A DNA stretch of 64,000 bases from Streptomyces sp. ISL-96 (GTDB lineage Bacteria > Actinomycetota > Actinomycetes > Streptomycetales > Streptomycetaceae). The position numbers were made by a program, and so were the translations under genes. The stretch covers positions 124,001-188,000 of the forward strand of contig NZ_JAGGPA010000006.1 of the NCBI RefSeq assembly GCF_018614035.1. Direction: 5' to 3'. The notes beneath the pieces are model-generated. The model did no database searches and was not told the origin of the DNA. It saw nothing but the letters and a program-made list of their open reading frames with translations. Shown piece by piece: positions 37,176 to 40,273 of the stretch (within the stretch, counting starts at the first letter, position 1; each line of letters begins with the position of its first letter).

Positions 37176-38162
37176 ATGAAGATCGCTTTCGTAGGGAAGG
37201 GCGGCAGCGGCAAGACGACGCTGTCCTCGCTCTTCATCCGCCACCTCACCGCCAACGAGGCCCCGGTCGTCGCCGTGGACGCCGACATCAACCAGCACCT
37301 GGGCCCCGCGCTCGGTCTCGACGAGGCACAGGCCGCGGCGCTGCCCGCCATGGGCGCGCACCTGCCCCTCATCAAGGACTACCTGCGCGGCACGAATCCC
37401 CGTATCGCCTCCGCCGAAACGATGATCAAGACCACGCCACCGGGAGAGGGTTCGCGCCTGCTGCGGGTGAGCGAGGACAACCCGGTGTACGACGCGTGCG
37501 CCCGTACCGTGCGGCTCGACGACGGCGAGATCCGGCTGATGGCCACCGGGCCGTTCACCGAGTCCGACCTGGGTGTCGCGTGCTACCACTCCAAGGTCGG
37601 TGCGGTCGAGCTGTGCCTCAACCACCTCGTCGACGGCCCGCAGGAGTACGTCGTCGTCGACATGACGGCCGGTTCAGATTCCTTCGCCTCCGGCATGTTC
37701 ACCCGCTTCGACATGACCTTCCTGGTGGCCGAACCGACCCGCAAGGGCGTCTCCGTCTACCGCCAGTACAAGGAGTACGCGGCGGACTTCGGCGTATCCC
37801 TCAAGGTCGTCGGCAACAAGGTGCAGGGCCAGGACGACATCGACTTCCTGCGCGAGCAGGTGGGCGACGACCTGCTGGTCACCGTCCGGGCGTCCGACTG
37901 GGTCCGCGCGATGGAGAAGGGCCGCCCTTCTCGGTTCGAGCTCCTGGAAGCCGACAACCGCCTCGCCCTCCAGACCCTGCAGGACGCCGCGGAGGATTCG
38001 TACGCGGAGCGCGACTGGGAGCGTTACACGCGCCAGATGGTGCACTTCCACCTGAAGAACGCGGAGAGCTGGGGCAACGCGAAGACGGGCGTCGACCTGG
38101 CTGCCCAGGTCGACCCCGCCTTCGTCCTCGGGGAGGCGCTGCCCGTCCCCCAGCCCTCCTAG
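37176..38162 (+). CDS. ParA/CooC-like P-loop ATPase
   Basis: This 328-residue protein has a deviant Walker A KGGSGKTT (8-15) with the signature lysine, VVAVDADIN as the switch strand and VVVDMTAGSD as Walker B. CooC-like enzymes of this type insert metals or act as chaperone ATPases. No cofactor partner lies beside it, so the target is unknown. The C-terminus ends in ALPVPQPS. ATG at 37176 starts directly at the first beta strand; three in-frame starts lie upstream without a better ribosome-binding site. The last 22 codons and the stop are repeated exactly 353 bases downstream in a 243-bp direct repeat. Confidence 0.85.
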   Translation: MKIAFVGKGGSGKTTLSSLFIRHLTANEAPVVAVDADINQHLGPALGLDEAQAAALPAMGAHLPLIKDYLRGTNPRIASAETMIKTTPPGEGSRLLRVSEDNPVYDACARTVRLDDGEIRLMATGPFTESDLGVACYHSKVGAVELCLNHLVDGPQEYVVVDMTAGSDSFASGMFTRFDMTFLVAEPTRKGVSVYRQYKEYAADFGVSLKVVGNKVQGQDDIDFLREQVGDDLLVTVRASDWVRAMEKGRPSRFELLEADNRLALQTLQDAAEDSYAERDWERYTRQMVHFHLKNAESWGNAKTGVDLAAQVDPAFVLGEALPVPQPS

Positions 38163-38338
38163 ACCCGTACTTCGCAGGTCACCCGATCGTGAAGATCAAC
38201 TGGTCACGACCGATCGCCGCTCAGTCCGGTCCGCAACGGCGATCGCAATGCCGGTCCGATCCGGTCGGGTTCGGACGCCGAAGAGCCGCTGCGGCGAACC
38301 TTTTCAGCGACCCGCGAAGTCCGGGCCTAGAGCCGCAA
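38096..38338. repeat. 243-bp perfect direct repeat, copy 1
   Basis: The stretch from CCTGGCTGCCCAGG to AGAGCCGCAA is identical at all 243 positions to 38449-38691. It covers the last 22 codons and stop of the P-loop ATPase plus about 176 bases downstream. The copies are 353 bases apart with a 110-base unique spacer. Inside are short palindromes such as CCTGGCTGCCCAGG and the CGATCG-containing CGACCGATCG. Confidence 0.95.
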
Positions 38339-38448
38339 CCACCTGCCCCCGGTCGCGGGCCGGACGGACGGAGTCCGGCACAGCGCCCCGAAGCCCGAGA
38401 GGCGCCCCCGGCGCCGAACGTCGCGAGGGGCGCAGAAGGAGGAACCTG
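38339..38448. other. Unique spacer between the direct repeats
   Basis: This 110-base G+C-rich segment contains an imperfect inverted repeat around GCCGGACGGACGGAGTCCGGC and a purine-rich GAAGGAGGAA end immediately before copy 2. No gene is recognisable. It could be the remnant of an inserted element flanked by target-derived repeats. Confidence 0.5.
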
Positions 38449-38691
38449 CCTGGCTGCCCAGGTCGACCCCGCCTTCGTCCTCGGGGAGGCGCTGCCCGTC
38501 CCCCAGCCCTCCTAGACCCGTACTTCGCAGGTCACCCGATCGTGAAGATCAACTGGTCACGACCGATCGCCGCTCAGTCCGGTCCGCAACGGCGATCGCA
38601 ATGCCGGTCCGATCCGGTCGGGTTCGGACGCCGAAGAGCCGCTGCGGCGAACCTTTTCAGCGACCCGCGAAGTCCGGGCCTAGAGCCGCAA
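38449..38691. repeat. 243-bp perfect direct repeat, copy 2
   Basis: Identical to 38096-38338. Copy 2 carries an orphan fragment of the ATPase 3' end (22 codons and stop) without the rest of the gene. Sequence identity ends sharply after AGAGCCGCAA, where copy 2 continues GTATTTTGCGG and copy 1 continues CCACCTGCCC. Perfect identity in non-coding DNA implies a recent event or an assembly artefact. Confidence 0.95.
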
Positions 38692-38704
38692 GTATTTTGC
38701 GGAG

Positions 38705-39994
38705 TTAGTGGCGCTCAGCCGGCTTGGCGTGGGAAGCCGGCGCTGCGCTCGGGGCGGCCGCGGTGGGCTGGGTGGTCAGGAATGGTCCCCAGCCTTCCTG
38801 CGGGTTCTCCCCGACGTCCAGAGTGCGCATCTTGGCGAGCACCTGCGGGTCCTGTGCGTCCAGCCAGTCGACGAGCTGCTTGAAGGAGACGCAGCGCACG
38901 TCCCGCTTCACGCAGACCGTTTTGATCGTCTCCTCGATGGCGCGCATGTACGTGCCGCCGTTCCAGGACTCGAAGTGGTTGCCGATGATCAGCGGGGCCC
39001 GGTTTCCGTCGTACGAGCGGTCGAAGGCCTGGAGGAGGCCGTCGCGCATCTGGTTGCCCCAGAACTCGTGCTGGGCCGGATCGCCCTTGACCGTTCCCGA
39101 CTGGTTGACCATGAAGTTGTAGTCCATCGAGAGCGTTTCGAAGGCCCGCCCCGGCACCGGTACCAGCTGGAGCGGAATGTCCCACATGCCCTGGGTCTTC
39201 TTCGGCCACACCTGCTTGCCGATACCGCTGGAGTCGTAGCGGAAGCCCAGCTCTTTTCCGGCCGCCATCATGTTCTTCTGCCCCTCCAGGCAGGGAGTGC
39301 GGGCGCCGACGAGCTCCTTGTCGTAGTCGAAGGGCAGCGGCTTGGCGTCCTTCAGGCCCGAGTTGGTCTTCCAGCGCTTCACGAACGCCTTCGCCTGCGC
39401 GATCTCGCTCTTCCACTCCTCCGTGGACCAGGTGCCGACGCCCCCGTCCTTGCCGCAGAAGTGGCCGTTGAAGTGCGTGCCGATCTCATTGCCGTCCAGC
39501 CACGCGCCGCGCAGCTGTTCCACGGTCTCGCTGATTCCCTCGACGTCGTTGAAGCCGATGTCGGAGCGGCCCGGTGAGTGCTGCGGCGGGTCGTAGAGGT
39601 GCCTCTTGTCCTCGGGGAGCAGGTATACGGCGCTGAGGAAGTACGTCATCGTCGCGTCGTACTTCTTGCCGACCTCGCGGAAGTGGGAGAAGAGCCGCTG
39701 GCTGTCCTCCCCCGCCCCGTCCCAGGAGAAGACCACGAACTGCGGCGGACTCTGACCGGGCTTCAGCCGCTGGGGCCTGGTCACATTCGGCTGCTTTCCG
39801 GTGTACGCCGTCGAGCCGTCGCCAATCAGGCGTACCCCGCTCATGGGCGCCGGCTTGGGCGCGTTCTTCGCTCCGTGGGCGCCTTGCCCGGCGTCTGGGG
39901 CGCCCTGGCCGGCGGATCCCGAGCAGGCCGCGAGCGAGCCTGCCAAGGTCACGGCGGCGACGCCGAAGACGATCCTCTTCGTGGCGGCCATCAT
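38705..39994 (-). CDS. Polysaccharide-deacetylase-like lipoprotein
   Basis: This 429-residue exported protein has a signal and lipobox LAAC (Cys24), starting at ATG 39994. AGAGGG precedes it by about seven bases. The fold is NodB-like: FSWDGAGEDS supplies the catalytic Asp region, and THFNGHFCG resembles the metal-binding HxxxH strand. GFRYDSSGIG, and HFESWNGGTYMRAIEETI near the end, match the related deacetylase/xylanase family. The probable substrate is a cell-wall or extracellular sugar polymer; not verified. Its 3' end lies only 14 bases from copy 2 of the 243-bp repeat. It is divergent from the SulP fusion gene. Confidence 0.8.
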   Translation of the reverse strand: MMAATKRIVFGVAAVTLAGSLAACSGSAGQGAPDAGQGAHGAKNAPKPAPMSGVRLIGDGSTAYTGKQPNVTRPQRLKPGQSPPQFVVFSWDGAGEDSQRLFSHFREVGKKYDATMTYFLSAVYLLPEDKRHLYDPPQHSPGRSDIGFNDVEGISETVEQLRGAWLDGNEIGTHFNGHFCGKDGGVGTWSTEEWKSEIAQAKAFVKRWKTNSGLKDAKPLPFDYDKELVGARTPCLEGQKNMMAAGKELGFRYDSSGIGKQVWPKKTQGMWDIPLQLVPVPGRAFETLSMDYNFMVNQSGTVKGDPAQHEFWGNQMRDGLLQAFDRSYDGNRAPLIIGNHFESWNGGTYMRAIEETIKTVCVKRDVRCVSFKQLVDWLDAQDPQVLAKMRTLDVGENPQEGWGPFLTTQPTAAAPSAAPASHAKPAERH

Positions 39995-40273
39995 CCGCCC
40001 ACCCTCTTCCGTCAGGTTTCGTGCGCTGCACTGCCGACACAGCGCGGCAAACCTCGCACGGCCTAGCGGAGGAATAAATACGACAAGCCGCTTAAATTCC
40101 TTATTCGTCACTACGAGTGAATGGTTGCTCCATTTAGACCTAATTGCCCCATTGGTTCTTTACTCTGCATTACCATTCATTTACTGAGAGTTGAAAATCC
40201 CGCCGCTGCACGCCGTGACCCACGGCCGCGCCCCACGTTCCGCGACCGCGCTGCCCCGGAGGAGACGGGAACC
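39995..40273. promoter_or_regulatory. A+T-rich divergent promoter region
   Basis: Between the deacetylase-like gene and the SulP fusion the sequence from about 40080 to 40190 is strikingly A+T-rich for this genome (CTTAAATTCCTTATTC, CATTCATTTACTGAG). It probably contains both divergent promoters. I cannot assign individual boxes with confidence. Confidence 0.45.

What the first reader, a model, noticed from the sequence alone, without database searches (positions are those of the whole stretch)
38096..38691. Perfect 243-bp direct repeat duplicating the 3' end of a ParA/CooC-like gene
38096-38338 and 38449-38691 are identical at every base, with a 110-bp unique spacer between. The repeat includes the last 22 codons and stop of the ATPase and ~176 bp of non-coding DNA. 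The A-B-A-C layout is not a simple A-B tandem duplication; it looks like an insertion flanked by target-derived copies whose cargo is now 110 bp, or a recent duplication. An assembly artefact is also possible. Non-coding identity argues for a very recent origin.
Basis: partly seen in the sequence, partly recalled or inferred. Interest (0 to 1): 0.62.

Follow-up and report, generated by a model that had tools for sequence, protein, structure and literature searches.

The report
Old gene-end duplication, recently re-copied
The perfect repeat is real, but it is not a recent one-off: it belongs to a Streptomyces-centred family of small structured DNA elements that often sit at the 3' end of a gene between two copies of that gene end, and here the two copies were probably made identical recently, together with a separate small transposon that had landed in them.

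Summary
The 243-bp repeat is exact. Copy A = last 67 nt of the ParA/CooC-like gene + a 174-bp MITE (M, IS1634-type ends; 28 near-identical copies seen genome-wide) + 7 bp. The 110-bp spacer is a second dispersed element (B): about 80 nt, four helices with strong covariation; its exact core is in 91 of 392 same-genus genomes. A-B-A is common for B: 61 of 107 testable cores are bracketed by exact direct repeats of at least 18 bp, against 1 of 175 control positions; but only 6 of 36 loci in three B-rich genomes. A1 holds the stop codon of a same-strand gene in 39 of 60 loci. B copies most resemble B at the same gene in other species (51 of 60), so they are old. At parA, B joined to a second gene end occurs in at least 9 of 392 genomes, and G085 has A-B-A without M. 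So A-B-A is old; the 243/243 identity is best read as recent homogenisation that also copied M. How B first duplicated the gene end is unknown; a long target-site duplication is my best guess.

The parts
37176..38162 (+). ParA/CooC-like ATPase gene (CbiA domain); start codon chosen by eye (ATG 37176), stop TAG 38160-38162
   Evidence: Pfam CbiA E 5e-7
38096..38338 (+). A1: first copy of the 243-bp repeat = gene 3' end (38096-38162) + MITE M + 7 bp
38158..38331 (+). M1: 174-bp MITE incl. CCTAGA at both ends (38158-38163, 38326-38331); its left end lies on the gene's TAG stop
   Evidence: ends match IS1634-type elements in other genomes; M-free site in G085
38339..38362 (+). left part of the spacer, similar to the parA 3' UTR of G085; this part is not conserved between B loci at other genes
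38363..38443 (+). B: conserved structured element (model R1 positions 1-80), hairpin GACGGAC-GGA-GTCCGGC first
   Evidence: C69:162363-162443, E 7e-9
38339..38448 (+). whole 110-bp spacer, ending in the purine-rich right end of B (AGAAGGAGGAACCTG), flush with A2
38449..38691 (+). A2: second copy of the repeat, beginning inside the coding sequence of the gene
38511..38684 (+). M2: second MITE copy, identical to M1
38705..40111 (-). convergent neighbour ORF (resembles a secreted polysaccharide-deacetylase-type protein; name by eye, not searched); next to parA in many relatives

Best explanation
The spacer is one member of a family of small (about 80-110 nt) structured elements (B) lodged at gene 3' ends in Streptomyces. 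When a B settled at parA in an ancestor, the gene's 3' end came to lie on both sides of it (A-B-A), most likely as a long target-site duplication (inferred). The A copies then kept recombining with each other (gene conversion, unequal exchange), which keeps A1 and A2 alike within a genome, makes (A-B)n-A arrays, and would excise B cleanly. In this strain's lineage an IS1634-type MITE (M) inserted at the CCTAGA that includes the gene's TAG stop, with a 6-bp direct repeat; one recombination tract then made gene end + M + 7 bp identical in both copies, giving 243 of 243. Shown: A-B-A as a frequent property of the family; B's structure and nearly fixed right end; same-gene lineages; A-B-A at parA without M in a relative; M as a MITE by its ends and copy number. 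Inferred: the first duplication event, the homogenisation tract and its direction (A1 to A2), and clean excision.
For: 61 of 107 testable cores have an exact repeat of at least 18 bp bracketing B, against 1 of 175 control positions. Stop codon of a same-strand gene inside A1 in 39 of 60 strong loci, within 200 nt before the core in 4 more; none of the other 17 has an opposite-strand stop in A1, a test made only on those. Right edge of B at 61-68 or 74-84 nt after the core start in 58 of 76 aligned cores. Covariation: 93.0% of cells paired vs 84.5% shuffled, 109 vs 33 double-change cells, slid controls 37.5-44.5% paired, 63 sequences; within the response-regulator lineage alone 16 vs 3.3 double-change cells, 0 of 500 shuffles, 24 sequences. 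Nearest B is at the same gene in 51 of 60 (shuffled mean 10.5, maximum 23), and the window's B is nearest to the parA B of G371. B joined to a second parA gene end in at least 9 of 392 genomes; A-B-A in G085 lacks M. A1-A2 difference within genomes 0.048 vs 0.099 between genomes for A1 (response regulator, 23 loci), 0.050 vs 0.134 (parA, 8 loci). B-free relatives: no B match in 29 of 29 parA loci fetched, and in 4 of 30 response-regulator loci. M.
Against: In three B-rich genomes only 6 of 36 B loci show A-B-A. Of 27 others inspected there, 17 have B ending 70-92 nt after its start at the stop of a convergent gene, 4 more within 145 nt, with no visible duplication, and in 23 of 27 the left flank belongs to a longer repeat. 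Some loci read A-B-A-B' with a truncated second B (L233, L418, own C75), which tandem duplication explains as well as insertion does. The 'GCCGCAA' tail in both own copies could be native, so two parallel M insertions into two identical CCTAGA sites are not excluded. No exact pre-insertion site for B was found at parA; the UTRs of relatives are too diverged. The within-genome comparison counts only loci with a recognisable A2.
Confidence: 0.68

Rival explanations
1. B was resident in the 3' UTR first and the second gene end arose by backward template switching from B's right end (replication slippage at a strong hairpin), followed by loss of the second B.
For: Truncated second B copies after A2 in L233 and L418 and a near-complete last B in own C75; small tandem duplications inside B that also end at its right end, e.g. 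L368, L370, L378.
Against: All 24 B-bearing response-regulator loci displayed carry at least a remnant of A2, so B without A2 was not seen at that gene; the right junction is alike at many genes; one more A than B in L181 and L200.
Confidence: 0.2
2. A simple recent tandem duplication or insertion private to this strain, as first proposed.
For: 243 of 243 identity incl. non-coding bases.
Against: B joined to a second parA gene end in 8 other genomes; B nearest to B at the same gene elsewhere.
Confidence: 0.05
3. Assembly artefact: a short-read assembler duplicated the gene end with M or placed M twice.
For: Many contigs of this assembly end in M, so M was hard to resolve; no reads were available.
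Against: A-B-A at parA and at many other genes in independent assemblies, some of one contig (G268, G098).
Confidence: 0.05
4. B spreads by target-primed reverse transcription, as a SINE-like RNA element: nearly fixed 3' end, variable 5' end, variable long target duplication, sense orientation.
For: Right edge clustered, left edge variable; covariation; same-strand gene stop in A1; partial copies of B's right end only. The own genome does carry reverse-transcriptase matches.
Against: No RVT_1 match in 6 B-bearing genomes (G466, G449, G173, G371, G278, G307) of the 14 searched; no tail of A; no helper found; B here is old.
Confidence: 0.1
5. M itself made the 243-bp repeat, since two IS1634-family elements are reported to make direct repeats of 8-514 bp.
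For: An element with M's ends encodes an IS1634-family transposase; long variable repeats of IS1549 and IS1634 are stated in PMC2266710 (passages).
Against: M lies inside the repeat, not between the copies; elements with M-type ends show 6-bp repeats; A-B-A exists without M in G085.
Confidence: 0.02

Closest known systems
YPAL/RU-2 of Yersinia (168-bp small mobile sequence)
   Same: Small non-coding element, internal inverted repeats, not A+T-rich, target duplications of variable size (PMC2229807, passages)
   Different: There 3-26 bp; here about 13-243 bp, tied to gene 3' ends in sense orientation, one nearly fixed end, same-gene lineages and within-genome similarity of the duplicated ends
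IS1549 / IS1634 long direct repeats
   Same: Long, variable direct repeats of target DNA, 8-514 bp (PMC2266710, passages)
   Different: Those are insertion sequences with a transposase; B has none and no terminal inverted repeats. M, which has ends of that family, shows a 6-bp repeat
REP/BIME and MIRU-type intergenic repeats (recalled, not read here)
   Same: Small palindromic intergenic repeats near stop codons, tandem arrays
   Different: I recall no report of a flush copy of the upstream gene's end after each unit
Diversity-generating retroelements (recalled)
   Same: Gene 3' end, then hairpin, then a copy of that gene end
   Different: Mismatches between the copies are of all types, not at adenines only; no RVT_1 match in 6 B-bearing genomes, though there is one in the own genome
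Elements that insert into a gene's 3' end and bring a replacement end (integrative elements at tRNA genes, some mitochondrial mobile genes; recalled)
   Same: Functional gene end upstream, displaced end downstream
   Different: No room for an integrase or endonuclease in 110 bp; a different gene end duplicated at each locus

Membership tests
IS1634-type MITE (for M) | ends shared with an element coding for an IS1634-family transposase | tested here: met
   CTAG(A/G)CCCG(T/G)ACTTCGC ends on L100, whose 557-aa protein hits NF033559 E 2e-74
IS1634-type MITE (for M) | 5-6 bp direct repeat | tested here: met
   CCTAGA at both ends wherever both ends of a copy are visible; the six bases NCTAGN equal at both ends in L100, L106, L115, L116, L118, L119, unequal in L101 and in the degenerate L102-L105; single CCTAAA at the M-free site of G085
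IS1634-type MITE (for M) | mobilised in trans by a transposase in this genome | tested here: inconclusive
   only a transposase remnant found (C16, two short matches); assembly is in 101 contigs
Small non-coding mobile repeat with target duplication (for B) | under 200 bp, dispersed | tested here: met
Small non-coding mobile repeat with target duplication (for B) | bracketed by target direct repeats | tested here: met
   61 of 107 vs 1 of 175; but 6 of 36 in three B-rich genomes
Small non-coding mobile repeat with target duplication (for B) | exact empty site in a close relative | tested here: inconclusive
   B-free orthologues exist but UTRs too diverged to place the join
Insertion sequence or MITE (for B) | terminal inverted repeats | tested here: not met
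   by inspection of the B sequences: left edge variable, no matching ends
Diversity-generating retroelement | substitutions confined to adenines of the template-like copy | tested here: not met
   210 mismatches in 58 loci, all types; adenines of A2 changed in 21 of 464, adenines of A1 in 62 of 505, other bases of A1 in 148 of 3480
Diversity-generating retroelement / SINE-like | reverse transcriptase in the host genome | tested here: not met
   RVT_1 in 6 of 14 genomes searched, the own one included; absent from 8, of which 6 are B-bearing
Known Rfam RNA | match to a curated family | tested here: not met
   4 matches in 37900-38900, all far below their gathering scores and none on B itself

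The most novel reading that the evidence does not exclude
B is a new kind of bacterial mobile nucleic acid: a short structured RNA-like element that homes to the 3' ends of particular protein genes, leaves the functional gene end upstream and a copy of that end downstream, and remains as a self-homogenising, excisable A-B-A unit, moved by an RNA-templated or RNA-guided process whose helper is unidentified.
Probability: 0.25. Interest if true: 0.82.

Novelty: new variant of a known kind. Interest (0 to 1): 0.62.

Why it matters
Streptomyces genes can carry a 3'-end unit in which a covarying structure sits between two copies of the gene's own end. If the reading holds, some gene ends in this genus are duplicated, homogenised and reset, which creates variable sites and can spread passengers such as M. 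The locus gives a direct test of how short elements make long target duplications; for the IS1549/IS1634 case PMC2266710 (2008; passage) says that no mechanistic model had been proposed.

Tried and rejected
Rfam on 37900-38900: four matches far below gathering scores, none on B. Mini-ORF idea (B supplies a start codon for the duplicated gene end): in-frame starts in 13 of 35 loci, 13 and 5 in the other two frames, so rejected; Shine-Dalgarno match of the tail hardly above shuffles (16 of 35 tails with 5 or more bases, shuffled share 0.32). DGR idea: substitutions of all types. Reverse transcriptase as a general helper: missing from several B-rich genomes. M as cause of the long repeat: M lies inside it. 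Literature: the strings GGACGGAGTCCG and GTTTGAGGCGCG are in 0 papers; among the titles listed (capped lists) none is on this element. All this covers only the open-access library, and a sequence printed in a figure or supplement would be missed.

Limits: B loci were chosen by an exact 18-20-base core and by what the tools listed, so they are not a random sample; several cores come from one array or from two records of one species, so the 107 are not independent; 22 of 129 cores were too near a locus end to test. The 30 response-regulator loci were the best matches to a B-bearing query and are enriched for B. One search used 60 loci with a gene label, one B each; L261 holds two B copies and carries the wrong label for the copy used. 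One search left out response-regulator loci L312, L317, L318, L322-L324 and parA locus L419, where the motif or a recognisable second copy was missing. The alignments were picked by hairpin pattern, so pairs in the first hairpin partly reflect selection; the other helices were not selected for pairing.

Full report
OBSERVATION. The two 243-bp stretches are identical and 353 bp apart, with a 110-bp spacer. They lie in contig C69 (251,570 bp) of an 8.0-Mb genome in 101 contigs. I take the genus (g1) to be Streptomyces because G305, G224 and G275 share B loci with named S. gardneri, S. diastatochromogenes and S. hyaluromycini records (L198/L238, L191/L237, L203/L231 give the same values).

WHAT COPY A IS. 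Copy A is 67 nt of the gene's end (38096-38162), then the rest of element M, then 7 bp. M is 174 bp with CCTAGA at both ends. A search of the own genome with the region gave 35 matches. Reading the flanks gave 28 near-identical M copies, the two here included and one cut by a contig start, plus two at 82%. Two copies on C4 are adjacent and share one CCTAGA. An end-motif search found further M ends at contig ends, so the assembly breaks at M and the true number is probably higher. Among 392 genomes of the genus 26 had some match to M, but outside the own genome only G164 and G323 matched over nearly its whole length, at 73-74%. Elements with the same ends occur in other genomes. In L100 the ends enclose 2.6 kb with a 557-aa protein of the IS1634 transposase family (NCBIfam NF033559, E 2e-74; Pfam DUF4277). 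The six bases NCTAGN are equal at both ends of L100, L106, L115, L116, L118 and L119, and unequal in L101 and the degenerate L102-L105, so the direct repeat is read as 6 bp. PMC2266710 (passages) gives 5-6 bp for the IS1634 family and notes two members with long variable repeats. M is therefore read as an IS1634-type MITE. At parA its left end lies on the TAG stop, which survives.

WHAT THE SPACER IS. The spacer holds the core GACGGAGTCCGGCACAGC. With at most one mismatch this core occurs 9 times at 7 places in the own genome. At 6 of the 7, direct repeats lie around it: 243 bp here, 45, 33+18, 13 bp, 21 bp after a truncated B (C36), and a 131-bp tandem array (C75); at C64 none was found. Two of these are a fabF-like and a methionine-aminopeptidase-like gene end (names by eye from the C-terminal sequence). 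The exact core is in 91 of 392 genomes of the genus, and the reversed control pattern shows 0 in the rows listed. A scan of named genomes returned 87 stretches, 80 of them held as loci, mostly Streptomyces and Actinacidiphila, a few in unrelated taxa that look like chance.

STATISTICS OF A-B-A. Of 129 cores held, 107 could be tested. An exact direct repeat of at least 18 bp brackets the core in 61 of 107, against 1 of 175 random positions in the same loci; at least 15 bp, 68 against 3. Local alignment of the two sides scores at least 36 for 76 of 113 cores. The left edge varies. With one entry per locus, 39 of 60 strong loci have the stop codon of a same-strand gene inside A1 and 4 more have one within 200 nt before the core; of the remaining 17 none has an opposite-strand stop in A1, a test that was made only on those. 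In a second sample, found with a covariance model in three B-rich genomes, only 6 of 36 loci show A-B-A (score at least 50), against 1 of 240 mismatched controls; four loci picked because they were tandem all show it. Of 27 of the others that I inspected, 17 have B ending at the stop of a convergent gene (gene edge 70-92 nt after B's start; in 6 the stop lies in B's own tail), 4 have one within 145 nt and 6 have none; the left flank of 23 of the 27 matches other loci, so B there is the 3' part of a longer mosaic repeat. A-B-A is thus frequent but far from universal.

STRUCTURE. An alignment of 63 long-type B sequences supports four helices with 25 pairs: 93.0% of cells pair against 84.5% in shuffles, 109 double-change cells against 33, and slid controls pair at 37.5-44.5%. 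Within one gene lineage, the response-regulator gene ending RGLGYKFEP, compensatory change is also seen: 16 double-change cells against 3.3, 0 of 500 shuffles, 24 sequences. The structure therefore seems to be kept in place after arrival, not only while moving. A model built from the first alignment finds 7 copies in the own genome and matches in 83 of 245 genomes of the order, in 2 of 8 genera, with filters that lose weak matches.

AGE AND LINEAGES. The most similar B is at the same gene for 51 of 60 labelled loci (shuffled mean 10.5, maximum 23). The response-regulator query matched in 392 of 392 genomes. Of the 30 best loci, which are enriched for B by the query, 26 carry B or its remains and 4 do not; three of the four are from genomes 96% identical to the carrier in the gene. 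Within a genome A1 and A2 differ by 0.048 on average, against 0.099 between genomes for A1 (23 loci with a recognisable A2), and A2 is nearest to its own A1 in 18 of 23; for parA 0.050 against 0.134, 6 of 8. This is concerted evolution, or repeated renewal. Arrays with one more A than B (L181, L200) and arrays ending in a truncated B (L233) both occur. The two copies differ by substitutions of all types. Adenines of A1 are changed more often (62 of 505) than its other bases (148 of 3480), those of A2 are not (21 of 464), so this is not the template-adenine pattern of a diversity-generating retroelement.

THE PARA LOCUS. Among 29 relatives whose parA region was fetched, none has a B match. A query of B plus the second gene end found the two joined in at least 9 of 392 genomes (the list of places is capped): the own genome, G085, G162, G268, G299, G249, G310, G371 and G098. 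Reading the eight other loci shows the same order, with both gene-end copies found by motif in seven; in L419 (G249) only the downstream copy was found. In G085, 92% identical over B plus gene end, A1-B-A2 is present without M. Its A1 continues TCCTAA AGCCGCAAC, and its A2 ends TCCTAG followed by a fragment of a further gene-end copy. In the own genome both copies continue CCTAGA-M-CCTAGA-GCCGCAA. The simplest history is an old A-B-A, insertion of M in one copy (A1, judging by its tail), then one recombination tract of 243 bp that overwrote the other. Two separate M insertions at two identical targets remain possible.

MECHANISM. Shown: structure, clustered right edge, same-strand gene ends, gene-end copies, same-gene lineages, within-genome similarity of A1 and A2. 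Inferred: that the copy arose as a long target-site duplication when B arrived. A template-switch origin and an RNA-templated origin are rivals. RVT_1 was found in 6 of 14 genomes searched, the own one among them, and not in G466, G449, G173, G371, G278 or G307, which carry B; this weakens the RNA-templated version but does not exclude an ancient event.

COMPARISON. YPAL/RU-2 of Yersinia has variable target duplications of 3-26 bp and internal inverted repeats (PMC2229807, passages). IS1549 and IS1634 make repeats of 8-514 bp (PMC2266710, passages). B lacks a transposase and terminal inverted repeats, so I file it under neither. No paper in the open-access library holds the core string of B or the string of the mosaic repeat in its text.

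Noticed in passing
G000 contigs C85, C68, C58 end, C12, C1, C4, C79, C5, C67 (L013-L017, L021, L025, L027, L035): M lies inside a second, diverged intergenic repeat family (flanks about 75-92% alike over tens to some 450 bp), while M itself is 99-100% identical in these copies except L035 (82%), which looks like repeated targeting or conversion at one site.
   Followed up: partly
G000:C4:7606-7945 (L021): Two adjacent M copies share one CCTAGA, period 168 bp.
   Followed up: no
G000:C75:31008-31349 (L036, L178) and C36 (L039, L175): Own-genome array of three B units of 131 bp whose last B lacks its tail; C36 carries a truncated B and shares flank sequence with C75.
   Followed up: partly
L365-L403 (G466, G449, G173): B is often the 3' module of a longer mosaic repeat (GCCGGCGTTTGAGGCGCGGGG ... 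GGGGCGGAGCCCC) at ends of convergent genes; in 6 of 27 loci inspected the stop codon of the opposite-strand ORF lies in B's tail.
   Followed up: partly
G000:C16:200712-201012 (within L179): Remnant of an IS1634-type element with an M-like end, a possible decayed parent of M.
   Followed up: no
L303 (G122): B at the response-regulator gene is interrupted inside its first hairpin by some 25 nt, and a partial second B follows A2.
   Followed up: no
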